A stretch of 64,000 nt of DNA from Thunnus maccoyii (lineage: Eukaryota > Chordata > Actinopteri > Scombriformes > Scombridae). Where the stretch lies: the NCBI RefSeq assembly GCF_910596095.1, contig NC_056537.1:877574-941573 (forward strand). The letters run 5' to 3'. The position numbers and the translations under genes are program-made. The notes below the pieces were generated by a model, which saw nothing but the letters and a program-made list of their open reading frames with translations, had not been told where the DNA came from and made no database searches. This document shows, in pieces, positions 30,301 to 63,834 of the stretch; the stretch's first letter is position 1, and each line of letters opens with the position of its first letter.

Positions 30301-31880
30301 AAAGACAAACGTATTAGAAGCAGTCAGTCAGGCATGAGGAGGTTTTATTAAACATTGGATCTTATATAAAGTCAATACAAAAAAATGAACTCATGTAGTT
30401 TACAGAGGAAGACTAACAGGCCTGAAGGCAGGAGGGTCTAATCAGGAGAAGTGTCACCAAGGAGGTTAAAGGTAAAACTAAACAGGGACTTGAGGTTTTA
30501 CAGCAATAACTACAAACAAGATGGTGTCACTATTTGGAGAATAAAGTTGAAATGTTATGAAATAAAGTCGTTTTGAGGGGAAAAAAGTTGTAAATTTGAG
30601 AATAATCTCATGGTCTTATAAGAAAAAGTTGTAATATTAAAAGTGATCATGTTATGAAAGTAAAGTCGTGTTTTTACACTAATGAGTGTTGGTTTGTCCT
30701 CACTGATGATGGTGCTGAATGAGAACCAGTTGATTTATCCGACAGGTGACGCAGCTTCACTCAGAACAACCTGATGAAGAGTTTTGAGCTGAACTGTTTC
30801 TGCTCAAACACACTGAGAGGAAAGAAAACAGCTGATCACGTGTCGCTGAGGTTGTTGGAGTCATTTAAAGTGTCTCAGCGTGACGTCTGTGGACCTCTAG
30901 TGGTGAATGTCAGTATTACACGTATGTGAAGGAATTTTTAGGTTGCAATGTCTGTCGATCCAAACTGAAATATCTCAACTAATACACGATGGATTAAATT
31001 TTGTGCACACACTCATGTTCCCCAGAGGATGAATCTTACTAACTGTGTTAATCCTCTTGAGTTTTCCTGTAGCACCACTGTGATGTTGACATATGTTGTT
31101 TTTTGGTGAAATGTCTCAACAACCGTTGGATGGATTGCCATCAAATTTGGTTCTGACAGCCACGTTCCCCTCAGGATTAATTATAATAACTCTGGTGATC
31201 CCATAAAGCAGCTATAATCGATAATCTCTCCTCAGTCTGATGTGTCAGTGTGTAATGTGTTGGTGATGAACCTACAGAGAATTATCAGAGACTCTGCAGC
31301 TCCTCTCGGCTTTACGGAGCTTTATAGTGAGTTTCAGCTCATTGTTTATCTGTCCGGCTGCAACTTTACTGTTCTGGTTCACTCTCAGCGTCTCATAGCG
31401 TCGTTTTCAGAGAAAAAGCTGTAAAAAGCCGCTGTACACTACCTGCTCACAGTTAGCTGTAGACTAGCTGGTGAACATAGTGGAGCATTTAGCAGCTAAA
31501 GAGCCAGATATTTCCCTCAGGAGCTGGTAGAGAGTAAAAACAGCTAAAAGAGAAACACGACTCCACATGAATGATAATGTTGCTCCATAACTGCTGGATG
31601 TGGAAACAAGTTCAACATATCAACTTAAAGCTGATGATGAGTCAGAGTTGAGTTCACTACAGCGCTAACGTATCACTTAACGCAGGTTTAACTTTTTATC
31701 TGGTGCCATCATCAGATCAAAATTTCAATTTATCCAACACCTTGATTTATGACCAAATATCTGCTACACAGAGTCTCAGCTGTACTTTGTTTTTGTTTTG
31801 TTTTGATAATAAGCAAATGTTGACCTGAAAGATGAAACACCAGCATCGTAGCGTGCAACTAACTAAACTGAAAATTATTT
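30301..31880. repeat. Intergenic stretch made of dispersed fish repeats
   Basis: Segments near 30950-31210 (AATATCTCAACTAATACACG; AAATGTCTCAACAACCGTTG followed by GATGGATTGCCATCAAATTT) and 31760-31840 (CTCAGCTGTACTTTG) belong to a dispersed repeat that I recognise as frequent in fish. It appears split by an insertion at about 31215-31700. Part of the insertion (GCTCCATAACTGCTGGATGTGG, about 31582) recurs at about 56524 and 58280 in NEDD1 introns. No gene found. Confidence 0.55.
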
Positions 31881-47594: not shown

Positions 47595-50500
47595 ATGGAG
47601 GAGGTGACCCGCCTGATGTCCACAGGCGACTCTGTGAAGCTCTGGGATGCGGTTTCCATGGCACCTCTGGAGCAGTTTAACCCACACAGCATCAGCCACC
47701 CCGTCGCTCAGGCCTGCTGGAGCTCCAACAGTATCCTGATAGAACCGATCATCTGCTTTGATCATCTCAATAATCACATCAGTGATGTGTCACTAAAATA
47801 CTGCAACAGTGTGAACTGGTCGTTTATGCACTGGTGTGTAAATCACCTGTTTAAGATGTTCACTTGTCCGTCTAATAGTGTTTTTCCGTGGAGGGAGGGA
47901 GGGAGGGATGGATGGATGGAGGGATGGATGGATGATGAATGGAGGGAGGGCTGGGTGGATGGATGATGGATGGAGGGATGGAGGGATGGATGGAGGGATG
48001 GATGGATGATGGATGGAGGGAGGGAGGGATGGAGGGATGGATGGATGGAGGGAGGGATGGATGGATGATGGATGGATGGATGGAGGGAGGGATGGATGGA
48101 TAGATGGAGGGAGGGATGGATGGATGATGGAGGGATGGATGGAGGGAGGGATGGATGATGGAGGGATGGATAGATGGAGGGATGGATAGATGGATGGATG
48201 ATGGAGGGATGGAGGGAGGGATGGATGATGGAGGGATGGATGATGGAGGGATGGATGATGGATAGATGGAGGGACGGATAGATGGAGGGATGGATAGATG
48301 GAGGGATGGATAGATGGATGGAGGGATGGATGGATGATGGAGGGATGGCTGGATGGAGGGATGGATAGATGGAGGGATGGATGATGGAGGGATGGATAGA
48401 TGGAGGGATGGATGGATGGAGGGATGGATGGAGGGATGGATAGATGGAGGGATGGATGATGGAGGGATGGATGATGGAGGGATGGATAGATGGAGGGATG
48501 GATGATGGAGGGATGGATAGATGGAGGGATGGATGATGGAGGGATGGATAGATGGATAGATGGAGGGATGGATGGATGGAGGGATGGATAGATGGAGGGA
48601 TGGATAGATGGAGGGATGGATGGATGGAGGGATGGATAGATGGAGGGATGGATGATGGAGGGATGGATGATGGAGGGATGGATAGATGGAGGGATGGATG
48701 ATGAAGGGATGGATAGATGGATGGATGGATGGAGGGATGGATGATGGAGGGATGGATGGATGGATAGATGAATGGATGGATGGATAGATGGAGGGATGGA
48801 TGGATGGAGGGATGGATAGATGGAGGGATGGATGATGGAGGGATGGATAGATGGAGGGATGGATGATGGAGGGATGGATAGATGGATAGATGGAGGGATG
48901 GATGGATGGAGGGATGGATAGATGGAGGGATGGATAGATGGAGGGATGGATGGATGGAGGGATGGAGGGATGGATGATGGAGGGATGGATGATGGAGGGA
49001 TGGATAGATGGAGGGATGGATGATGAAGGGATGGATAGATGGAGGGATGGATGGATGGAGGGATGGATGATGGAGGGATGGATGGATGGATAGATGAATG
49101 GATGGATGGATAGATGGAGGGATGGATGGATGGAGGGATGGATAGATGGAGGGATGGATGATGGAGGGATGGATAGATGGAGGGATGGATGGATGGAGGG
49201 ATGGATAGATGGAGGGATGGATGATGGAGGGATGGATAGATGGAGGGATGGATGGATGGAGGGATGGATGGATGGATAGATGAATGGATGGATGGATAGA
49301 TGGAGGGATGGATGATGGAGGGATGGATGGATGATGGATGGATAGATGGAGGGATGGATGATGGAGGGATGGATGGAGGGATGACGCTCTCAGCTGTATC
49401 AGAGCCGTGTTCAGTTGCTGCTGCTGTTTCATATTAAAAGCCTGATCGGAGCTTCGTTAGCGGAGCTTCGTTAGCGGAGTTTCGTTAGCGGAGTTTCGTT
49501 AGCGGCGCCGTCGTTCAGTAAAACAGGTCGAATCAACCAGATATCAAGGTTCAAAGTTCACTTTACTGTCATTCAAGACCATAATGCACATGTGAGAAGT
49601 TTACAGCAGAACAAAACTGCATTTACTCAACATGCAAAATAAAAACACTGATAAAGAAATAAAAACATCTGGACACATTCTGCGTTACTTGATGGGCGGA
49701 AAAGTTTTAAATACTGCAGAGAAGAACAGCCGCAGTCAGCTGTTAGATTCCTGTTATTATTTATTGATATGTATGTATTCATGGAAGTCTGAACTGGTGT
49801 CAGTTGACTGAGAAAGATGAAGCAGCCTTGACCAGTTCAACTCAGACCAGTTCATGGTCAGTGCCAGCAGCAGTGGAGACAAACTGGTGGTTTCCAGCCT
49901 CAAGTCGTCTCCTGTTCCAGTGGTGGAGCTGGCTGAGGGGGTGAGTGCACGGCCTCTGATGATGATGATGATGATGTGTTTCTATCATTGCTGTCCTTCA
50001 CTAATCACGGCTCTTTGATGGTCTGTTCAGAAAAAACAGACTCGTGTGTGTTTGAGTTCGTCATCTCAGTTTCTGGTCAGTGGAGGTCTGGATCACTGCG
50101 TTCACATCTGGAACCTGAAGACCACGAGACTGCACCGCTCGCTGAAGGTAAGACCTCACCGAGCAGGACGGCGGCGAAACAACATCCTGCGGTCTCTGCT
50201 TCTCAAACACAAACACAGGCTAGCCTAGGCTAACCGCTAAACCTTTAGTTCAGGTGACCGAACCACGAGAAAGTGTTCCTAGAAGCACACTGAGTTTGAT
50301 CGCTAAAGAAGCATTTTAAGCATTTACGTTTGACTATGACTTATGGTTTCTAGAAGAATAGAGAATTATAGAAAATCTCAATCAATAATTACAATTTAAG
50401 TCCTATAAACTTTGTCCACAACACACTGATATAATTAATATCAAAGAGAATTAAGTGGACTGCCAACGTATAGCTCAGAAACATTATATAGGAGATTATT

Positions 50501-53500
50501 AACTCATCAATTCCACAACTGTACCAGATTTTCATGCTGGGAATAAACAATAAGACGGCAACATATGTTAATGTACAATTACAATCAAACTGTTCCAAAT
50601 ATGAGAGATAGCAGTAAAATGAACCTTTATGCCCATAATGTCTCATAACAAACACTAACAGAGAGCTCAGATTTAAGTCTGTTCCTGTCGTAGATGTGAT
50701 CTTTACATCTGCTACTGGATCTCCAGAGTCAGCTGACCATCCTGAGTCACGACAGTCCCGTAAACTGCGGCGGGTCCACAGACTGAAGTGATTCACGTCA
50801 TAGTTTAAGGGACTGTCGCGACTCAAGACGGCTAATATAGCAGCAACATCTACGTTACTTTTGCACGTGCACGTTGTAATAACAGCAAGAAAACACACAT
50901 ACACGTAACATTTAGTACAAATGAGTAAAGGCACGAATGTAAAGATCGATTAATTGGAGAATCAGTTCTTGTATCCAGTTCTAGCTGTGAGGAGGTTTAA
51001 CAGCCTCGACTGTTGAGGATCTGACGAGAGTGAGAGGTTACTGTCTGTCTCTGTCACAGGACCACAAAGAAGAGGTGACCTGCGTTTCCTTTAATGCCAA
51101 TGACAGCTACATCGCCTCCGGCTCCACCAGCGGAGATCTGGTCCTCCACAGTCTGACCACCAACCTGTCCAGCAAAGCCTTCGGCCACGGCAGCGACCAG
51201 GTCAGACAACCTGCTGCTCATTCATGTCTGCAGCTTTATCTTTAGTGGTGTTTAGTGGTTAGTTTTGGCCACGTGGTTGTACACAACAGGGTTTCACAAT
51301 TACATAGACAGTAGGTCACATCCTATCGGCACATGTAGAGTATGTCGTCCCCTTTAAACATTAAACGTAAACATCAACATCATACGAAAACAAAAGTGTG
51401 TATATTTGGCCCCATAAAAGACAAAAAGAAAACATTAAAATGAATGAAAATTACATCAATGCATCGTTTCCAGACAGTTCGAAATTTATGAGTTTCCAAA
51501 AACTCCATATAAAGGCTCCATGAGCGAGCAAAGTTCTTGTCTTTACAGTTTCTCCAGAGAGAGACTAGGCTGCCGCATAGAAGGTAAGTCCACTACTTTT
51601 AGGAAATATGTAACTTAACCTTGCAGGTGTAAGATAAGTTTGTATTAACCATTTGTACTGTAAAAACTTAACTGGTTCTGGGCCTTAAAACATGCCGTTT
51701 CTGCTCCATGAATATCCTCCTTCATGTCTGTCCTCCATGCCTCGTAGCTTTTTGGAAGACAAATCTTTTGAACTTATTAACAATAAACCATAAACAAAGA
51801 GAACTGACCTTTACCAGTCATATGGGTGAGTTAGTTCCTCAGTTTTAGACAATGGAGGTAAAGACACCAGTAACTTAGGTCTGGATAAAATGTTTAAATA
51901 AATGTTTTTTCAGAATACCATATTTCTCACACACCTGAATATGTGTCAGTAGACGATCTTCTATATATCGATCTGACATTTTCTCCACAACTTTGTGACA
52001 CCGACATGTTTGACGTGCAGAGCACCAAACCGAAAAAGCTTTTTAATCCTCGTTGAATATAGATAAAACTTGAGAGAAAGTCGTGATGATGATATCTGCT
52101 CTATAGTCATCCATGCTGGAAAAGGAGCTGCAGAGAAATAATACATTGCTGATCTTAACTGGGCAGCCCAATAATACCATTTCAAACTGGGGAGCTGAAA
52201 CACTCCCCTTTCATATGGTGTATATAAATAGCCTAAGTTGGAGTCTAGTTTATTATTATTCCAGATGAATTTGTTCAATAAATCTAACCATTTTAACATC
52301 TAAGTATATAAAACCTTCCTTAGTGGCTGTGAGAGGTTCAATAACAACAATGCTGACTTGGAATTGTTTATTTTATGCCCTGAGATACCTCCAAAACTCT
52401 TGATTAAATTCATTAATTGAGGAATAGTATCATTTAAATTTGCTATAAAAAGTATGACGTCATCTGCATACAAAGATATATGATGTTCATGACCAGCAAT
52501 AGTTCTACCTGAGATGCCTTCATGAGCTGTTATGGCCGAAGCTAAAGGCTCAATGGCTAATACAAATAACAATGGCTGTAAGGGGCACTGTAAGGGCAGA
52601 GCGTTGGAGATTAAACATTATTATTGGTCAGTATCTCAGCAGTTGAATCTGCGCATAAAATTTGGACTAATCCCAAATCTCGGGAGCACACTGAGAAGAT
52701 CGCCTCACTGCATCCTATCAAAGGCTTGGAGCGCAATGTAGTCCATTTGTTTTCCAGTATTTGAGAAAACAGACTTGAAAAGACCTTTTGATCTTTCAGT
52801 CCGCTGCTGTTTTCATGAATTCTAACTTTTGTTTTTGTGATCTTCAGCCCATCCATGACCTGAGGCTGTCCACGCTGAAGCGCTCCCTGCTGGGCAGCGT
52901 TTCTGACAGCGGCACCGTGGTCCTGTGGGACTCCAACACCCAGAAGGAGCTGCAGGTGTTTGACAGCGCCCACAAGGCCCCGGGCTCCGGCCTGGCCTTC
53001 TCCCCCATCAGCGAACTGCTGGTGGTCAGCGTCGGTCTGGACAAGAAGATCGTCTTCTACGACACCGCCAGCAAGATGTAAGACTTATTATTCTCATATG
53101 ATGATGTAAGTAGGGCTGGGCCATATGGACAAAATCAAATATCACAACATTTGTAATGTGGATATAATGACTAAGTGGATAAAGGCAAATAATATAACAG
53201 CAGTCCAGTAGGTTCAGAACATTACATCACTTTACTGTGATGAAGCCTTTAAAACCAGGAACATTTATAACATATCACCATATTACAATATCTAAAATCT
53301 AAGACGATATCTAGTCTCATATCTGTCAATATATCAATATATTGCCCAACTGTAAGTGTAAACAGTACAGACACCATCATGCTGTTTCATTTTATAGTTT
53401 AAATTAATATTTGATATGAGCTCCAGCTGACTACAGTCTCTGAAGTCAAAGGTAGCTGACTAAAAACCTCAGGTCTTACAGCTTGTTAAGACTCTGTTAA

Positions 53501-56500
53501 TGATTTAATATCATGTTATATGAAAATTGCATTTAATCAAAATTAAAGCTGCAACATTTCTTTAGTCTCTATGACAGTAAACTGAATATCTTTTGTGGAC
53601 AAAACAAGACATTTGATGACGTCATCTTGGACTTTTTCGCCATTTTATAGACCAAACAACTAAACTAAACTGGGCAGACCTGGTACAATAACCCAGTTTG
53701 GTGCCACAGTCAGCTACAGATATGTGTATAAGGTATATATAAGGTGTGTAGCATGGTCGGGAGGAAGCAAAGTCAGCTAGCCTCCTCTAGAAGAAGCAGC
53801 TGGTCTGACGGGCGGCTGAGTGAAGCGCAGCCTGCGGAGGAAACACCGGGACCGTCAAGGTGAAACAGTCCGTGGAGGGAAGCACAGTTCTGCGGCGGAG
53901 GAGAAGGCAACGAATCGGCCTCTCATAATCGGCAGAAAATGTTCATTTTGGCCGATGTCGATAATATCGTGCATCCGTAGTGTATGATATAATACATGTG
54001 TATGTATAATGTGTTTATAACGTATATAAATATGTGTGTGTCCACAGTGTCGTGAGGTCGATCCGGGTGGATAATCCGCTGACCTCGGTGGACTTTACTC
54101 CGGACGGTACTGGTCTGGTGGTCGGATCCACTCGGGGAAAGATCTACCAGTATGACCTGAGGAACTGTAATGCGTCCACCAGGATCACTGTGGCACATAA
54201 AACCTCCGTGACCTGCCTGCGCTTCCAGAGCGCCGCCAGCAGACACAAGGTACCAACAGACCAATCAGAGCACGGACTGACTCAACACCACTGTAGACTA
54301 GAGATACATGAGGCTCATATTTTACCTGATAGACTGTAAGAGTGTTTTAATGCTGCTGTTCATCATTTGTGATGTGAGAATCAGAATAAGAAGGTATTAG
54401 TGTTAGCACGGAGCGTCCTGATTGGCTGCTGACAGCGCTGTCAGCTGAAGAGTCGATCACACTGGACGGTAGAGAAGACGGTAGAGGAGACGATGGAGGA
54501 GACGATGGAGGAGACAGTAGAGGAGACGGTAGAGGAGACGGTGGAGGAGGTGGTGGAGGAGACGGTGGAGGAGACGGTAGAGGAGACGGTGGAGGAGACG
54601 GTAGAGGAGACGGTAGAGGAGACGGTGGAGGAGACGGTAGAGGAGACGGTAGAGGAGGTGGTGGAGGAGACGGTAGAGGAGGTGGTGGAGGAGACGGTGG
54701 AGGAGACGGTAGAGGAGACGGTAGAGGAGACGGTAGAGGAGGTGGTGGAGGAGACGGTGGAGGAGACGGTAGAGGAGACGGTGGAGGAGACGGTAGAGGA
54801 GGTGGTAGAGGCGACGGTGGAGGAGACGGTAGAGGAGGTGGTGGAGGAGACGGTAGAGGAGGTGGTAGAGGCGACGGTGGAGGAGACGGTAGAGGAGACG
54901 GTGGAGGAGGCGGTAGAGGAGGCGGTAGAGGTGGTGGAGGAGGTGATAGACTTCACTGTATTTAATGCTGGAGCTGAGAGTCGCTGTGCGTCTCACAGAT
55001 GTTACAGGTTGAGGTTTTTCACTCTCTGACCTACAGTAACCCTTCATGTCGTCATGTGATGTAACGTTGGTAAAACAGTTTTATAGTGAATGGATTTGAA
55101 CTGCGAGGCTGTAGCCTTTAACCAGCTGTAAGGACGGCTGATGTTAGGATTATATAGTTACTCTTCATCATCATCATCATCATCGTCGGTCCTGAAACCG
55201 ACTGGAAACTGTGTGCAGGTTGTTTTCACATGAAAACGTAGTGATGTAGTCAGTCAGTGTCTCTCTCTCTCCTCAGAGCTCCACCAAGATTTCCAGCACC
55301 AAGAGACCTTCTACCAAACTGTCCAGCAGCCAGCAAGACCCCGCCCCCTCCCCCGGCACAGGCCCCGCCCCCCACAGACAGATGACAGGTCGGTTCATCT
55401 GATTGGCTGTTGTTAGGGATGCAGCAATTAACAGTTCATAATAAAAACACTTCAGTTTATTACTTATATTAGTCAATGAAGTTCATCTTAATCTTATATT
55501 AATAATAATAATTAAAATACTATATTTTAAATACTAACTTCCTGTTCATGTGATTTTATGCATCTGTATAATAATAAAACACAACATCACAATCTTCAGA
55601 ATGACTCCAGCACAGTAAGCTTTCAGATAATGAAGTACCAGTAAGGTCAGAGGTCAGAGGTCAGAGGTCAGACAGTGAGCTCAGTGTCGTTGTCCAGCAG
55701 GAGGCGCCGGAGCAGAGCTGATGAGCAGAGAGGCTGAAGGCCAGCAGGGAGCGGAGCAGCCGCCCGTCGGACAAAACAGCGTGGACGTCTTCTCTCCTGC
55801 AGGTCAGACCTCTGATTGGTTCAGCCGACGCTGCCTTCACTGCCTCCTCAGAAAACTGAGCTTCTCTCTAAATGATGCAGCCGTAACTGTGACATCATTA
55901 AAGTATGAACCAGTCTCATGTTTTCACTGTGTTGTGCTGTTAAAGAACGAAACTTTTAACAGGAAGTCACCTGCTAGTCTGAAGTGATGCTGCTGCTTCA
56001 GGGATGACTTTGTGTTTCCATAGTTACCAGTTCGAAGCTGCTGTCCAGAGAAGGGGAGGGTCAGCAGTTCATCGGCCGCGGCAGCCTGGACATTTTCTCC
56101 CCAGTCAGAGAAGGTCAGACTCCCCTCACTCTACTGGTTTTTACTGGTTTCTACTGGAAGTCACCTGTCAGTCAGAAACGATGCTGCTGGTTCAGGGGTA
56201 ACCTTTAATGTTGTGTTTCCATAGTTACCAGTCTGGAGCTGCTGTCCAGAGAAGGGGAGGGTCAGCAGTTCGTCGGCCGCAGCAGCCTGGACATTTTCTC
56301 CCCAGTCAGAGAAGGTCAGACTCCCTTCACTCTACTGGTTTTACTGGTTTCTACTGGAAGTCACCTCAGATAGCTGATAATATGACAGAAGTAGTTTTTA
56401 CAGACTATTCTGCTGAAAACAAGTTCAGGCAGCTTTAACCAGGTTGAAACTATGAAGGACCAAGACTAGAACCCTGAGGAACCCCACATGTGATTATTGA

Positions 56501-57712
56501 CATTATCAATGGGAGGATCATGTTGCTCCGTAACTGCTGGATGTGGAAATAAACAACTGTTTACTAACAAGTTCAACACATCAACTTAAAGCTGATGATG
56601 AGTCAGCGTCATTTTGAGGAAACAACATCTACTCATGACTCACATCAGCTCAACTGTCAAATATGAAGAAGTCAGCGATCAATATGTAGAAATTATTAAG
56701 TAAGAAAAACAGCTGATAACTGCTCCAGTTTGTATTATTTGATGATACGACTGAAAGATGTTCAGTTTACTGTCGTAGAGACGAAAGAAACCAGAAAATA
56801 TTCACATTTAACAAGCTGCAATCAGAGAATTTGGACTTTTTCTGCTTAAAAAAAATGACTCAAAACGATGAATTGATCACCAAAATAGTTGATTAATAAT
56901 TAATGTAATAGTTGCAGCTTTACTATTCAGTTTGTGAGAGTCTCAGGATGATAATACAGGAGACGCTGTGACGGCTGTAAGCTGAGACGCATTTATTTGT
57001 GTCTGATATGAATAAACATGAACAGCTGCTGTTGGCAGCGTCGGACCTGTTTTTTTTATCCATTCATTCAGAAATCAATAATCAATAGTGTTTAGGAGCG
57101 TCTGTGAAACGTGAGTCATCCTCTGTGTCGTTGCCTCGGCGCGTACCGCCGGGCCTGAAACAACAAAGTCTAGAGGAAACACTGTCATGTATATTAATAT
57201 TAACACATTAACCCTTTCATGCATGAATTATGATAAACCTCAGTCAGGATGTTTTTATTCCTCTTTAGGCATGAAAATAAAGATTTGAACTCAGTGGACA
57301 GATGATGAATCATCATTTTCTCCCAACATAAAATCAACACTTGGAAATTTGAACAATTGTATAACTTGATGTTACAAAAGAAAACGGCTTTTGAACAGCT
57401 GTCCACTGTAGTGACCACCATGCATGAAAGGGTTAATCCTGTTTACTGTCCCGTCAGATCAGCTGACTGATCAATAAAGACATTCAGGTCAAAGGAGAGT
57501 TTCCTCGTCACCTCCGAGGTGCGTTTGAGCGGTTGGAACCTCCTCCGTGATGGCGGAGGGAGATCAGTGTCAGGGTCACGGCCGGACGACGGCGGCGCGA
57601 TGAGCAGAAAGCAGCTCATATCAGTGTTGTGTTAATTACTCGTTAGTCGTTCATCTCCATTTTTAATACCAAAGATTCTCTGGTTCCATGTTCACTGATG
57701 TGAGAGTTCCAG

Positions 57713-57760
<48 letters not shown>

Positions 57761-60700
57761 TTGGGGTTTTTGTGTGATGCACGTAGATGCACGAAGCACA
57801 GCAGAGTAACCGTCAGCTCTTCTTCCTGTCCAGACTCTAGGACCCAGGGGACGCCTGGAGACACACCTTTCGGAAGAACACAAGGTAAAAAAGGAAGTCA
57901 CCTGTCAGTCAGAAATAATGATGCTGCTGCTGGTTCAGGGACGACTTTTAATGTTGTGTTTCCATAGTAACCAGTCTGGAGCTGCAGGCCAGAGACGGGG
58001 AGGGTCAGAAGTTCGTCGGCCGCAGCAGCCTGGACATTTTCTCCCCAGTCAGAGAAGGTCAGACTCCCTTCACACCACTGGTTTTACTGGTTTCTACTGG
58101 TTTCTACTGGTGACCACACGTTAATCACAGCTAAATAACCTGCTGATATGACGGAGGTTGTTTACAGAAAAACACAAGTTCAAGCAGCTTTAACCAGACT
58201 GAAACTATAAAGGGTTAAGAATAGAACCCTGAGGATGTAATTATTGATTATTGAATGATTATCAGTGGGATGATGATGTCGTTCTGTGTCTGCTGGATGT
58301 GAAATAAGCAACATATCAACTATAAAGCTGCTGATTTGTCAGTTTTCTGCTCGTTTGTGATGAAAACACATCAGTGACTGCAGGTGTAACTTCATCATGT
58401 GGGTGTTGGGACAGACGCTGGGTTTCTGTGATGTCGTTGTTGTCATGGAGACGGGGATGGTTGTGTTTCAGACGCTGACTCGGGTGCTAACTCGCACCGT
58501 AAGACGCCCCTGCTGGCCTCGGCAGGGCGCTGCTACAGCCCGCTGTCCATCTTCCAGACGCCCCCGCCAATCAAAGAAGAGGAGCCGATCGCCGCTGCTG
58601 CGGCTGCTGCGGCTGAACCATGTGACTCTAGAAAGGTGCTGACCTCTGACCTCTGACCTCAGAGATCAAACATCACATACAAAGAGCGCAGCAGGATGTC
58701 GCCGCCAGTCGCTGTTTTTAAAATGAAAAAATGTGTCTTGATTGACAGTCCGACAAGGCCAGCTGCTCCAGCCTGGAGGGTCAGGATCAGACCACGCCCA
58801 CCCCGCCCCAGCAGACCAATCACAGCCAGCCGGCCCCGCCCTTCTTCACTCCGGAGCCCAGCCTCAGGAGAGCCAATGGTATTCAAGCTCAGCTGAGCTA
58901 CGACTCACCTGTCCAAGGAGCTCCGCCCACCACCACCACCACAGGTAGACTCACTAACAGCCAAACAAGTAAACAAACAAACAAACATAAATAAACAATA
59001 CAGGCCGATAAAAACTACACTCTACATAGAGAAGCTGTTTCCTGCAGCATCTCTGGCAATAAAACTGTGACATCATCATTAGAGGCTGACTCTCTGTGTG
59101 TCTGCAGACGCCTCCTCTTCCTCCTCCTCCTCCTCCTCTCTCCCTCAGCACATGGCAGAGGTGGCGGGACAGTCAGCGGCTGCTCCTCTCACCTCCCTGC
59201 AGGTCCACTTCATCCAGAACATGATCCATGACGCCGTGGAGGACTGCAGGTCTCTTTATTTAACACACGGACTTAAAGGATGAGCTGAAGTATTCTGTTT
59301 TGTCTCCGTGACAACAAACCGACGTGGTGTCAGTCGTCTCTCTCTCACTACTTTCTTCTTCTTCTTCTTCTCTTCAGAGACGCCTGTCACCGAGACATCA
59401 TCAACCTCCAGGTGGAGATGATCCGACAGTTTTACATCCAGCTGGTAGGAATCAATACATTCATTTCACACACTGATCGATCAGATTTCACAACGGCTTC
59501 ATGCATCACCTCCATCATCATCACCATCAAACTACACTCCTGCAGCTTTAATGAACATCTTTGAGTGTCAATAATAATTAAAGCTGTAAGCAGCGTTGGT
59601 CGGGACCTCGCTCTCTGGCCCATCGGGATCATTTTGCTTTTTAAAAATAAGGGATATTTCTTACAAGTGTGGTGTGCTTTTATTTTGAAAGTTTGATTGA
59701 CATGTGTAATGTCAGGTGTGTAGAGACAATAAGTAACTGCAGCTGGACACAGAAAAATACTCATATATTTGAATGGAGAGTGTAAGCGAACCCACACCTT
59801 TTTGAACATTTACTGCTTCCACATAGTTTTAGATACAAACTTCATTTGAACTTTAAATGAGTCACGAGACTTTGACCTACAAATCTTGAATTTACATGTT
59901 TTTTCTATCTTTTATTGTTTTTGAGATATTAGAGTGTGAGTTTTAAAGTCTTTTCTTGCTCCTCCTGTGATTTTATAATGAGTGTGTATTGCGGAATGTT
60001 TCACAGCACTGAGGGAGTGACATCACCAGGAGCAGTTGGAGAGGAGGATTTTAGAGTACGCTTCTTGTGAAATCTCCTCATAAATCCCATGACTTTGGCC
60101 AAATCTTACATTAAAAATCATCTTGTAGTAGGAAATTTCGTTGCGAATCCATTGATACAGGTTTGAAAGTGGTCAGACTTATAGTTTAGACGTCAGAAGC
60201 CTCTGTTTGACACAAAGTTCATGCCCATAGATTGCCTCCCCATTGGTTTACATTGTAAGGTATGATGTGGCACTGCAACTTTCAGGGCTTATAAAATCCA
60301 AACCGTTCGAGTTATTACAAAGTTTTTAACAACTTTTTTCCAGCACAGTGTCATAAGTCACCTATTAAAGTTTGAAGCTGATACCATTAACACCCTCGGA
60401 GGAGATAGTGTTTGTTCAGGGTCCAAAATTGGGGCAAAGTCTTATTTTGAAAGGCTAATTGCAGACTTCCTGTTGGATTTAGGTCAGGGGTGTCGGTGTA
60501 TGATTTGTAGGTCTTGATGAGACGAAATAATTGAGTTTTGGCACTTTGGGGGTTAATTTTTACATTTTATCAAATTTTTCACCAGACCTGATGTGGGGTC
60601 AAATTAAGAGTTGAAGTGGCGTAATAATAAAGAAAGAAACAAACACACGATACAGTAGTCCTCTGTCTTTTGGGCTCGGTCCCTAATAAATAAAATGTTT

Positions 60701-60871
60701 TATTATGAATCCAGTGATACACAGAGAGTCTCAGGACAGGAAATGATGTCATCCTCTGTGTTTCAGAACGAGATCCACAGTCTGGTGGAGAAATTCTCTG
60801 TGAACGAGTCTCTGGTGGAGGAGATCGAGAGGCTGCGAGAGGAGAACCGCCAGCTGAGGACCAACTACTGA
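47595..60871 (+). CDS. nedd1: NEDD1, gamma-tubulin ring complex targeting factor (17 coding exons, complete)
   Basis: WD40 adaptor that recruits the gamma-tubulin ring complex to centrosomes and spindle microtubules. Exons: 47595-47730, 49846-49940, 50031-50147, 51060-51200, 52848-53077, 54048-54249, 55277-55388, 55698-55802, 56024-56113, 56225-56314, 57834-57884, 57968-58057, 58472-58635, 58749-58944, 59108-59249, 59378-59444, 60767-60871. Phases agree at each junction: 710 residues; human has 660. Residues 1-307 form the WD40 propeller ([40 protein letters not shown]). The middle is Ser/Pro-rich with FSP motifs. The C-terminus ([62 protein letters not shown]) is the conserved helical gamma-tubulin-binding region. 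The extra length comes mostly from a triplicated 30-residue exon. The 51-nt exon (57834-57884) rests on splice signals and phase only. Confidence 0.94.
47888..49385. repeat. 1.5-kb GGATGGAT/GGAGGGAT array in NEDD1 intron 1
   Basis: A dense array of GGAGGGATGGAT, GGATAGAT and GGATGATG steps begins about 155 bp after the first coding exon. Long blocks repeat (for example the series near 48640-48900 and 48820-49100). The minus strand stays open for 529 codons reading Pro-Ser-Ile-His repeats, with no other sign of coding. A 16-bp repeat (GGAGCTTCGTTAGC) follows at about 49447-49505. Confidence 0.96.
50389..50950. repeat. Intronic sequence with an imperfect hairpin (about 50738-50835)
   Basis: CCATCCTGAGTCACGACAGT + CCCGTAAACTG near 50738-50768 is matched in reverse complement by the stretch near 50801-50834 (CATAGTTTAAGGGACTGTCG followed by CGACTCAAGACGG), with several mismatches and a roughly 30-base loop. 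A 181-codon open frame covers this region on the minus strand but has no recognisable homology, so I treat it as a repeat remnant in NEDD1 intron 3. Confidence 0.5.
51260..52800 (-). pseudogene. 5'-truncated L1-type LINE antisense in a NEDD1 intron
   Basis: On the minus strand a reverse-transcriptase fragment (52572 to 52300) contains the catalytic YADDVILF motif and a GHKINNSKS block. An in-frame stop follows directly, and then a C-terminal-type piece (52299 to 51961) with FIWNN and [13 protein letters not shown], typical of fish L1 ORF2. The segment expected between these two is missing. Upstream (about 52800-52620) a more N-terminal RT piece is in another frame. The truncated 5' end stops about 50 bp before the NEDD1 exon starting at 52848. 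Non-functional. Confidence 0.82.
53105..53355. mobile_element. MITE with GGGCTGGGC / GCCCAAC termini
   Basis: AGGGCTGGGCCATATGGAC at about 53113 and ATATATTGCCCAACTGTA at about 53335 form imperfect terminal inverted repeats, with AT-rich ATATC-containing interior. This matches a common fish MITE that I know by its GGGCTGGGCGATATGG end. It lies in the NEDD1 intron after the exon ending 53077. Fragments of other MITEs follow at about 53540-53640 and 53905-53980. Confidence 0.65.
54473..54947. repeat. Minisatellite, 12-bp unit (GAGGAGACGGTA), about 39 copies
   Basis: Units GAGGAGACGGTA, GAGGAGACGGTG and GAGGAGGTGGTG in a NEDD1 intron. The 12-bp period keeps frames open on both strands (Glu-Thr-Val-Glu, Ser-Ser-Thr-Val and Leu-Leu-Tyr-Arg repeats). 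Confidence 0.95.
56024..56113 (+). CDS. nedd1: NEDD1 repeated exon, copy 1 (90 nt)
   Basis: Phase-1 to phase-1 exon encoding [30 protein letters not shown]. It starts after TTCCATAG and ends at a GTCAGA donor. Residues about 380-409 of the assembled protein. Flanking intron DNA is shared with copies 2 and 3. Confidence 0.85.
56225..56314 (+). CDS. nedd1: NEDD1 repeated exon, copy 2 (90 nt)
   Basis: Same length, phase and splice signals as copy 1, exactly 201 bp further on. Encodes [30 protein letters not shown]. The upstream intron (AAGTCACCTGTCAGTCAGAA, CAGGGGTAACC, TTTCCATAG) and downstream intron (GGTCAGACTCCCTTCAC) match the other copies. Confidence 0.88.
56440..57833. other. NEDD1 intron: MITE fragment and TTA microsatellite
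   Basis: Contains the downstream part of the duplicated block (to about 56650), a MITE fragment at about 56750-56925 (CAGAAAATATTCACATTTAA, CAAAATAGTTGATTAATAA) and a (TTA)n run at 57713-57760. The rest shows nothing recognisable. The 51-nt exon follows at 57834. Confidence 0.6.
57968..58057 (+). CDS. nedd1: NEDD1 repeated exon, copy 3 (90 nt)
   Basis: Same phase and splice signals. Encodes [30 protein letters not shown]. Its downstream intron to about 58340 also matches the intron after copy 2 (AAGTTCAAGCAGCTTTAACC, AGAACCCTGAGGA, TCTGCTGGATGTG), so the duplicated block is about 450 bp. The last ten residues are unchanged among the three copies. Confidence 0.88.
59570..60690. mobile_element. 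Approximately 1.1-kb dispersed repeat in the last NEDD1 intron
   Basis: Begins AATAATTAAAGCTGTAAGCA + GCGTTGGTCGGG and ends TTGGGCTCGGTCCCTAATAA. I recognise both ends (AATTAAAGCTGCAAGCAGCG and GCTCGGGCCCTAATAA forms) as a very common fish repeat. No protein is encoded. It fills most of the intron between 59444 and 60767. Confidence 0.6.
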
Positions 60872-62700: not shown

Positions 62701-62915
62701 TGACTGTTGGTTTAAGACGGACTGGAAACAAAGTGTCAATAAATTCATGAGTGACAGCAGAGTCATCTGAATGTTGGTGGTGGGCGGGGCTTCCCTCTGA
62801 TCGGCCCCTTTAAGGCTGAATGAGAAGAAACGATTTGTTGATTGAGCTCAGTCTGAGGATCTGGAAGCTTGTTTCAAAGACACAGTGAAGGTCATGTGAC
62901 AGGACGATGATGTCA

Positions 62916-63737
62916 TCACTCCTCCACGTCGATGAGCAGTAAGTGAGGTTGGAGCAGGGACAGGATGGGGCCCCGCGGGGCCCCGGCCAGGCAGTACGCC
63001 TCGTCCACACTGACGCCACGGGAACGCAGCTCCTGCAAGGCTCTGCCGCAGCTTTCCCGGCCACCGCGCGACGTCATCAGCACGATACTGAGAGGGCTGT
63101 CGAACACGCTGAACCGCCGCCGCATCGTGCCCAGCTGAGCTGAGAATCGCTGCAGAAGAAGAAAACAAACTGTCCTTTAGAAACACATTAACCCTCGTAC
63201 ATCTGAGGTTTCAGAGGCAGCTTCTGAGAAATCCTCAGCGAGAATAAAAAGTGTTGGCAGGATGTTCGTACCTGAGCCGCCTGGCGACTCGCCGGCGCCG
63301 GGCTGGTGTCGGGAAGGATGACGGCGTCGCCGCACAACAAAACCCTGAGCTGCTCTGACGGACTGGAAGCTGTCAGCTGGTTCAGCAGCGCCGAGAGGAC
63401 GCCTGCAACAAACATCCACCCAGAGGAGGAAGAAGTACTCGGATCCTTTACTGCAGTAAAGATACTGATACAGCAAAGTACAAATACTGCAGTACAAGTA
63501 AAAGTCCTGCATGAAAAATCCTACTGCAGTAAAAGTACATAAGTATTATGAACATGGTTCACATCCATCACACATCAGCTGTAATAAATGACAGAGAAGA
63601 AGAAACTCCCTGACCTCTCTGTGACGCCTGCGACACCTCGTTTCCGTCTGGCGACAGGAAGAGCTGCACGTTATTTTTCAGTAAACTCTCGATGAAATCC
63701 TCCTCGCTGGAAAAACAGAACCTGCTGACTTCCAGAC
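62916..63737 (-). CDS. Cytosolic 5'-nucleotidase I-like protein, 3' part (three exons, N-terminus outside window)
   Basis: Three minus-strand exons: 63615-63737, 63272-63402, 62916-63149 (stop 62918-62916), with agreeing phases. The family (NT5C1A/NT5C1B) hydrolyses AMP with a HAD-fold site. Seen: a FIESLLKNNVQLFLSPDG stretch resembling the cN-I segment before motif I; L-R-V-L-L-C-G-D-A-V-I-L-P-D, aligned to the family L-R-V-x-F-D-G-D-A-V; and I-V-L-M-T-S-R-G, aligned to motif II (L-V-T-A-R-S). The segment G-V-S-V-D-E-A-Y-C-L-A-G-A-P-R-G-P-I-L matches the cN-I D-E-A-L-F-L-A-G-A-P-K-G-P-L-L block. The motif-I nucleophile Asp is replaced by Cys, a linker of about 20 residues is missing, and the protein ends at I-D-V-E-E where the family continues past the D-D motif. 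It may be a pseudoenzyme or decaying paralogue. Which NT5C1 paralogue is uncertain. Confidence 0.75.
63430..63560. repeat. Dispersed repeat related to 33270-33360, inside the nucleotidase-like gene
   Basis: GATCCTTTACTGCAGTAAAG, ACAAGTAAAAGTCCTGCATG and GCAGTAAAAGTACATAAGTA match the start of the element at 33280-33360. It is about 25 bp beyond the acceptor of the exon 63272-63402, in the intron. Confidence 0.7.
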
Positions 63738-63834
63738 CTGCAACAAAGCACTGATGACATCACAACAGGAAGACTACAAACCCCATCACTGATCAGCTGA
63801 CGGTAATCTGTCAACTGATGGTCAAAATTAGATT

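What the first reader, a model, noticed from the sequence alone, without database searches (positions are those of the whole stretch)
55950..58345. NEDD1 linker exon triplicated in frame, multiplying a D-I-F-S-P-V-R motif
Exons 56024-56113, 56225-56314 and 57968-58057 are each 90 nt, phase 1 to 1, with the same acceptor (TTCCATAG) and donor (GGTCAGA). Each shares flanking intron DNA: copies 1 and 2 are 201 bp apart, and copies 2 and 3 also share about 300 bp downstream. All encode [10 protein letters not shown] at the end, and the exon before them ends S-V-D-V-F-S-P. Human NEDD1 has, to my knowledge, one comparable site (G-D-M-F-S-P-I-R). The S-P-x-R core fits a CDK site in a region of NEDD1 known to be phosphorylated in mitosis. 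Tandem copies could raise the number of phospho-docking sites for spindle recruitment.
Basis: partly seen in the sequence, partly recalled or inferred. Interest (0 to 1): 0.72.

Follow-up and report, generated by a model that had tools for sequence, protein, structure and literature searches.

The report
Multiplied mitotic phospho-switch exon in NEDD1
In this fish-like genome, the small exon of the spindle gene NEDD1 that carries two mitotic switch sites known from human cells occurs four times in a row in frame (three intact, one older and worn), which could give the protein several copies of a switch that human and frog show once; whether all copies are used is untested.

Summary
The window carries a complete NEDD1 gene (47595-60871, + strand; 710 codons if every modelled exon is used). 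Exons 56024-56113, 56225-56314 and 57968-58057 are tandem copies of one 90-nt phase-1/1 exon. The preceding exon (55698-55802) is a fourth, older copy. A 51-nt in-frame candidate exon (57834-57884) lies between copies 2 and 3. All 32 inclusion combinations keep the frame.

The repeated end GR[S/G][10 protein letters not shown] aligns to human 402-415, so each 90-nt copy repeats both the Aurora A site (S405) and the Cdk1 site (S411), reported essential for acentrosomal and branching nucleation. Human and frog show one such module in the parts seen. Their total of full-consensus Cdk sites (three each there) is not below the fish's three.

Corrections: the "300 bp shared downstream" is a high-copy dispersed repeat; the duplicated unit is about 200 bp. 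The three recent copies show no purifying selection, so function is inferred. An assembly error is unlikely: the exons differ at 5-10 of 90 bases, with indels in the flanking intron. Transcripts, raw reads and other fish could not be checked. It is a new variant of a known kind (tandem exon duplication).

The parts
47595..60871 (+). NEDD1 coding gene, 17 exons in the model including the 51-nt candidate, 710 codons
   Evidence: protein aligns to Xenopus and human NEDD1 over the WD40 and C-terminal parts
55698..55802 (+). copy 0: older, divergent module exon (105 nt, phase 1-1; alternative acceptor at 55701 would give 102 nt): [11 protein letters not shown]...[12 protein letters not shown]; lacks R at -2 of the S405 equivalent and R at +3 of the S411 equivalent
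56024..56113 (+). copy 1: 90-nt exon, phase 1-1, [30 protein letters not shown]
56225..56314 (+). copy 2: 90-nt exon, phase 1-1, [30 protein letters not shown]
57834..57884 (+). 51-nt phase 1-1 candidate exon, [17 protein letters not shown]; not detectably related to the module
   Evidence: only candidate at its splice scores in 55389-58471 or in four other introns; no homology
57968..58057 (+). copy 3: 90-nt exon, phase 1-1, [30 protein letters not shown]
55958..56157 (+). duplicated unit around copy 1 (about 200 bp, exon plus flanking intron)
56156..56357 (+). duplicated unit around copy 2
57893..58100 (+). duplicated unit around copy 3
56372..56609 (.). dispersed high-copy repeat downstream of copy 2, not part of the exon duplication
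58164..58312 (.). more diverged member (79-82% to seven copies compared) of the same dispersed repeat downstream of copy 3

Best explanation
NEDD1 is the adaptor that places the gamma-tubulin ring complex on centrosomes and spindle microtubules. Here the exon encoding its S405 (Aurora A) / S411 (Cdk1) regulatory module was duplicated repeatedly. An older duplication left a divergent copy (55698-55802), and later duplications of a ~200-bp unit gave three near-identical, symmetric exons. Because all are phase 1-1, inclusion of any number simply lengthens the unstructured tether by 30 residues per 90-nt copy. The most likely product is a NEDD1 chain with up to three intact Aurora A/Cdk1 modules plus one degenerate one. 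With four chains per ring complex, that would be up to twelve S411-type sites where human has four. In mitosis Cdk1 and Aurora A would phosphorylate several modules, making recruitment to microtubules (branching) and chromosome-driven nucleation more graded, or more robust to loss of any one site. Shown: the exons as open, spliceable, in-frame sequence, their homology and the residue correspondence. Inferred: joint inclusion in mRNA, phosphorylation, multivalent effect.
For: Intact frames and splice sites in all copies; 32 of 32 inclusion combinations stay in frame. Within the duplicated units introns carry 3, 1 and 5 gap events in the three pairs and exons none. GR-S-S-L-(G)-D-[IM]-F-S-P-[VI]-R aligns to Xenopus 418-430 and human 402-414, placing the S405 and S411 equivalents inside each 90-nt copy. 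The only three S/T-P-x-K/R sites in the predicted protein are in copies 1-3, and each keeps R at -2 of the S405 equivalent; the module motif [DE][IVM]FSP occurs four times here and once each in Xenopus 64-580 and in human 48-348 plus 369-544. S405 and S411 phosphorylation are reported essential for chromosome-driven nucleation and for branching (PMC9836086: abstract, passages, discussion and one results section seen). NEDD1 is a tetramer on the ring complex and the sites lie in an unresolved tether (PMC12094035 passages). A genome search with 56000-56330 matched this locus only, at two places. A scan for phase-1/1 exons found one candidate beyond the copies in the array region and one in four other introns (splice matrices recalled; copies 1-3 set the threshold, so their own recovery is by construction).
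Against: No transcript evidence. Copies 1-3 show pN above pS in all three pairs (0.067/0.022, 0.125/0.069, 0.059/0.046), so no purifying selection is visible. Exon divergence does not differ from that of intron within the same units (Fisher p 0.42, 0.78, 0.46). Full-consensus Cdk sites total three in the fish protein and also three each in the printed parts of Xenopus and human NEDD1, where others lie in the WD40 part and further along the tether, so the overall number of such sites is not raised. Donors AAG|gtcaga have C at +3, a weak form by recalled matrices, though WD40 exon 51060-51200 has the same intronic donor; some copies may be skipped. No yUnAy match lay 15-60 nt before the copy 1 acceptor. 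S411D failed to rescue HeLa cells (PMC9836086), so more phosphorylation is not simply better. No other fish could be examined.
Confidence: 0.45

Rival explanations
1. Neutral expansion: the copies are real and spliced in, but extra length and sites in a flexible tether are tolerated and make no functional difference; one module does the work.
For: pN exceeds pS among copies 1-3 and exon divergence equals that of intron in the same units; the frame-neutral 90-nt unit breaks nothing; the total of full-consensus Cdk sites equals that seen in the printed parts of human and frog.
Against: The older copy 0 against copy 2 has pN 0.17 and pS 0.57 over 22 aligned codons (codons chosen by alignment, which favours low pN). 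All eight amino-acid-changing codons lie in the first 20 of 30 and the phosphosite end is untouched (p 0.02), though the intron just after is also nearly unchanged.
Confidence: 0.3
2. Alternative or mutually exclusive exons: only one (or a varying number) of the copies is included per transcript, giving near-identical isoforms or a splicing-tuned number of sites.
For: Tandem duplicated exons are known substrates for substitution splicing (PMC9741552 passages); donors and acceptors of the copies are of moderate score.
Against: Every combination is in frame, so frame does not enforce exclusivity. Introns of 111 and 83 nt have a yUnAy match 95 and 67 nt from the donor, so no steric block is evident (minimum distance recalled). 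Copies 2 and 3 differ at only four residues. No complementary arms of 25 nt or more around single copies were found.
Confidence: 0.18
3. Assembly or haplotype artefact: extra copies come from misassembly of alleles.
For: Tandem near-identical DNA is a common place for assembly errors; raw reads could not be seen.
Against: Copies differ at 5, 5 and 10 of 90 exon bases and by intron indels, more than expected between alleles; the duplicated unit is about 200 bp; no N in the window; the genome is in 54 contigs for 782 Mb with the window inside a 35.6 Mb contig.
Confidence: 0.04
4. Copy 0 is not a copy of the S405/S411 module but the orthologue of the tetrapod S377 (Nek9) segment, so that NEDD1's tether is an ancient two-module repeat.
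For: Xenopus has FPRSTSLDIIPSKE upstream of FGRSSLGDIFSPVRD; fish copy 1 scores marginally against it (p 0.034).
Against: Copy 0 shows no similarity to the S377 segment of Xenopus or human (p 0.75, 0.52) but does to the S405/S411 segment (p 0.003, 0.016); copies 2 and 3 do not match the Xenopus S377 segment (p 0.11, 0.11); the two tetrapod segments do not resemble each other (p 0.20, 0.92).
Confidence: 0.03

Closest known systems
Human and Xenopus NEDD1 regulatory tether (S377 Nek9, S405 Aurora A, S411 Cdk1)
   Same: Same gene; the module GR/KSSL(G)D[IM]FSP[VI]R with S405 and S411 equivalents; WD40 domain before it and C-terminal helical region after it.
   Different: Human and frog show one such module in the parts of the chains printed; here three intact plus one degenerate, each on its own exon. 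The fish module lacks the G before D, and no clear S377 segment was found.
Tandem duplicated exons with substitution splicing (human set in PMC9741552, passages; SNAP25 exon 5, PMC2581893, search listing and start of abstract)
   Same: Adjacent homologous exons of equal phase with shared flanking intron.
   Different: Here the copies are almost identical and additive inclusion is frame-neutral; nothing found enforces mutual exclusion.
Teleost domain amplification (Piccolo zinc fingers, PMC3484663, search listing and start of abstract)
   Same: Amplification of one coding module in a fish gene.
   Different: Here the module is a disordered phosphorylation segment, not a folded domain.
Multisite Cdk phosphorylation switches (Sic1, Whi5; recalled, also named in the listing)
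   Same: Several Cdk sites in a disordered stretch could give graded or threshold responses.
   Different: Here one composite Aurora A/Cdk1 module is copied by exon duplication. Function untested.

Membership tests
NEDD1 | N-terminal WD40 propeller matching NEDD1 best | tested here: met
   best matches in the PDB are Xenopus and human NEDD1, E 8e-144 and 8e-142; WD40 in Pfam
NEDD1 | C-terminal helical gamma-tubulin/MZT1:GCP3-binding region | tested here: met
   C-terminal part aligns to Xenopus 385-671 and human 445-659; oligomerisation itself not testable
NEDD1 | tether with S405/S411 module | tested here: met
   present three times intact
NEDD1 | S377 (Nek9) segment | tested here: inconclusive
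   only a marginal match of copy 1 to the Xenopus segment (p 0.034) and none to human; only copies 0-3 were tested
tandem exon duplication | adjacent homologous exons with homologous splice sites and flanking intron | tested here: met
   copies 1-3; copy 0 shares exon sequence, its flanking intron was not shown to be shared
tandem exon duplication | exons of equal phase, length a multiple of three | tested here: met
   90, 90, 90 and 105 nt, all phase 1-1
mutually exclusive tandem exons | never two copies in one transcript | not testable with these tools
   no transcripts; neither frame nor the two short introns enforce it
exonised transposable element | exon sequence belongs to a dispersed repeat | tested here: not met
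   56000-56330 matched only this locus in the genome search; the nearby repeat begins at 56372, outside the exon unit

The most novel reading that the evidence does not exclude
In this lineage NEDD1 has become a multivalent, splicing-tunable phospho-switch: the exact Aurora A S405/Cdk1 S411 module is copied so that one chain carries three intact modules, letting mitotic kinases set the strength of branching and chromosome-driven microtubule nucleation in steps, with the number of included exons varying by tissue or by embryonic stage.
Probability: 0.15. Interest if true: 0.75.

Novelty: new variant of a known kind. Interest (0 to 1): 0.5.

Why it matters
S405 and S411 of NEDD1 are reported as essential single sites, and constitutive mimicry at S411 (S411D) did not support spindle assembly in HeLa cells. 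An animal that carries the module three or four times is a natural experiment on whether the dose of this switch matters, and suggests a ready construct (one, two or three modules) for egg-extract branching assays. It also shows exon duplication multiplying a phosphorylation module rather than a folded domain. If only one copy is ever spliced in, or the extra copies are silent, it is an ordinary exon duplication.

Tried and rejected
Rejected: that copies 2 and 3 were duplicated together with about 300 bp downstream. The shared stretch is a dispersed repeat; the element after copy 2 is 88-98% like the seven other genomic copies compared, and the one after copy 3 is 79-82% like the same seven, so separate insertions are likelier. 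The genome search with the stretch after copy 3 itself did not complete, so its nearest relatives are unknown. Rejected with it: my first exon-versus-intron test (10/180 against 63/433, p 0.0015), because its intron set included that repeat; within the units there is no difference.

Rejected: copy 0 as orthologue of the S377 segment. Rejected: homology of the 51-nt exon to the module (16925, 17650 and 18388 of 20000 shuffles as good). In one search the three copy 0 comparisons aligned only intron, because the copy 0 stretch overlapped the copy 1 flank, and say nothing about the copy 0 exon; its homology rests.

Mended in checking: I had first written that human and frog show one full-consensus Cdk site; one search shows three each in the printed parts, and only the module is single.

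Led nowhere: a pattern scan of viral contigs gave one chance hit; the genome-contig scan gave no relative (406 pattern matches, none confirmed). Literature: no listed title or abstract start reported this duplication in searches (5 of 5 shown; 20 of 43; 20 of 44; 20 of 45; 20 of 2909; 7 of 7; 20 of 78; 20 of 1487; 20 of 89); most of these papers were not opened. Not answered: whether the genome holds a second NEDD1 and a search with the intron before copy 1 (not repeated).
Full report
The gene. The window contains a complete NEDD1 gene on the + strand from an ATG at 47595 to a stop ending at 60871. With every modelled exon used it encodes 710 residues with a single terminal stop. It matches Xenopus NEDD1 (PDB 9i8m) and human NEDD1 (9qvm) at E 8e-144 and 8e-142 across the WD40 part and the C-terminal helical part. 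That the host is a teleost is inferred from the gene's sequence and compact introns; no tool named it.

The array. Exons 56024-56113, 56225-56314 and 57968-58057 are 90 nt, phase 1 to 1, with identical acceptor ends (ttccatag) and donors (AAG|gtcaga). They differ at 9 of 30 codons, one silent and eight altering the residue; all lie in the first 20 codons. Intron around each copy is shared as a unit of about 200 bp: 55958-56157, 56156-56357, 57893-58100, at 84-91% identity. Copies 1 and 2 are head to tail; copy 3 starts 1743 bp after copy 2.

A fourth copy. The preceding exon, 55698-55802, encodes [29 protein letters not shown] against [26 protein letters not shown]. In each of 3 comparisons (copies 1, 2 and 3) 0 of 20000 shuffles scored as well, and exon DNA alone also aligns (0 of 5000 for each of the three copies). 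Over 22 aligned codons copy 0 and copy 2 have pS 0.57 and pN 0.17: this reads as an old duplication kept under amino-acid constraint, with the caveat that the codons were chosen by the alignment. Copy 0 lacks the R at -2 of the S405 equivalent and the R at +3 of the S411 equivalent.

A possible fifth exon. Between copies 2 and 3, 57834-57884 is a 51-nt phase-1/1 open candidate exon. It is the only such candidate at its splice scores in 55389-58471, and none appears in four of the gene's other introns totalling 4851 nt. At the copies' lower thresholds the scan returns five in 55389-58471 (copy 0 through its alternative acceptor 55701, copies 1-3 by construction, and this one) and one in the four other introns (matrices recalled). 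It is not recognisably a module copy. All 32 combinations of the five exons keep the frame.

What the module is. The conserved end GR[S/G][10 protein letters not shown] aligns to Xenopus 418-431 and human 402-415, so its serines include the equivalents of human S405 and S411. These are reported as the Aurora A site required for RanGTP/chromosome-dependent nucleation and the Cdk1 site required for microtubule-based nucleation; S411A failed and S411D worked for branching in egg extract, while S411D did not rescue HeLa cells (PMC9836086; abstract, passages, discussion and section 10 seen). Aurora A phosphorylation of Ser405 within a complex of TPX2, RHAMM, NEDD1 and the ring complex is described in PMC4831974 (passages). 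NEDD1 forms a tetramer on the ring complex and these sites lie in an unresolved tether (PMC12094035, passages; tetramer also PMC2835750, passages).

Counts of sites. In the fish protein the motif [DE][IVM]FSP occurs four times, and the only three S/T-P-x-K/R sites are those of copies 1-3, each with R at -2 of the S405 equivalent. In the printed parts of Xenopus (64-580) and human (48-348, 369-544) NEDD1 the module motif occurs once each, but S/T-P-x-K/R occurs three times each: one in the module, one in the WD40 part and one further along the tether. So the module is multiplied, but the total of full-consensus Cdk sites is not larger than in those species. This weakens a simple more-sites argument and leaves the argument from the specific S405/S411 module.

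Genome context. The window lies in a 35.6 Mb contig of a 782 Mb, 54-contig assembly; a search with 56000-56330 matched this locus only, at copies 1-2 and at copy 3, and one with 57770-57967 also only this locus. So the exon does not look like a dispersed element. The stretch shared downstream of copies 2 and 3 is a high-copy dispersed repeat: 1536 candidates at first look, 40 scored, 75 matches. The element after copy 2 begins at 56372 in six of the seven other loci compared (56375 in the seventh) and is 88-98% like them; the one after copy 3 (58164-58312) is 79-82% like them.

Selection. Among copies 1-3 pN is above pS in all three pairs, and exon and intron of the same units diverge equally (Fisher p 0.42, 0.78, 0.46). 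Absence of indels in the exons (0 in three pairs against 3, 1 and 5 gap events in the unit introns) hints at frame constraint but the numbers are small. The unchanged phosphosite end (p 0.02) is weakened by an almost unchanged stretch of intron directly after it, which could reflect conversion between copies.

Splicing. Introns of 111 nt (copy 1 to 2) and 83 nt (51-nt exon to copy 3) have yUnAy matches 95 and 67 nt from their donors, so neither looks blocked; the 221-nt intron before copy 1 has no such match 15-60 nt from its acceptor, and the other array introns were not examined. Frame does not enforce a choice. I therefore favour additive inclusion over mutual exclusion, without transcript evidence. 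The intronic donor gtcaga is shared with the WD40 exon 51060-51200.

Conclusion. Residue correspondence makes it specifically the S405/S411 module that was multiplied. Whether the animal uses the extra copies is open. I rank it as a new variant of a known kind, of moderate interest.

Noticed in passing
54465-54931: Minisatellite of a 12-bp unit (GACGGTAGAGGA), about 39 copies, inside a NEDD1 intron.
   Followed up: no
55647-55671 and 58639-58663: A short GGTCAGA repeat upstream of the array and its inverted complement (25 nt, 96%) downstream flank the module exons; paired in RNA they would loop out the array, but it is simple sequence and may mean nothing.
   Followed up: no
57714-57760: TTA microsatellite, about 16 units, in the intron between copy 2 and the 51-nt exon.
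   Followed up: no
56372-56609; also 31571-31694 and 58164-58312: High-copy dispersed repeat of about 240 bp with a sharp left end; in many matched loci a partial copy of its right part lies just to its left, suggesting a tandem-prone element.
   Followed up: partly
47793-49456: GATG-type minisatellite in the first NEDD1 intron (read from 49000 on); the stretch leaves open frames of 505-546 codons on the minus strand, presumably by repetition.
   Followed up: no
58472-59249: Homopolymeric runs in the tether: eight alanines, five threonines and nine serines in three successive exons.
   Followed up: no
62848-63760: Open stretches on the minus strand downstream of NEDD1 that could be exons of a neighbouring gene; not identified.
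   Followed up: no
55698-58057: No clear equivalent of the human S377 (Nek9) segment among copies 0-3; only a marginal match of copy 1 to the Xenopus segment.
   Followed up: partly
47595-60871: The fish NEDD1 model has no S/T-P-x-K/R site outside copies 1-3, whereas the printed parts of human and Xenopus NEDD1 have two each outside the module.
   Followed up: partly
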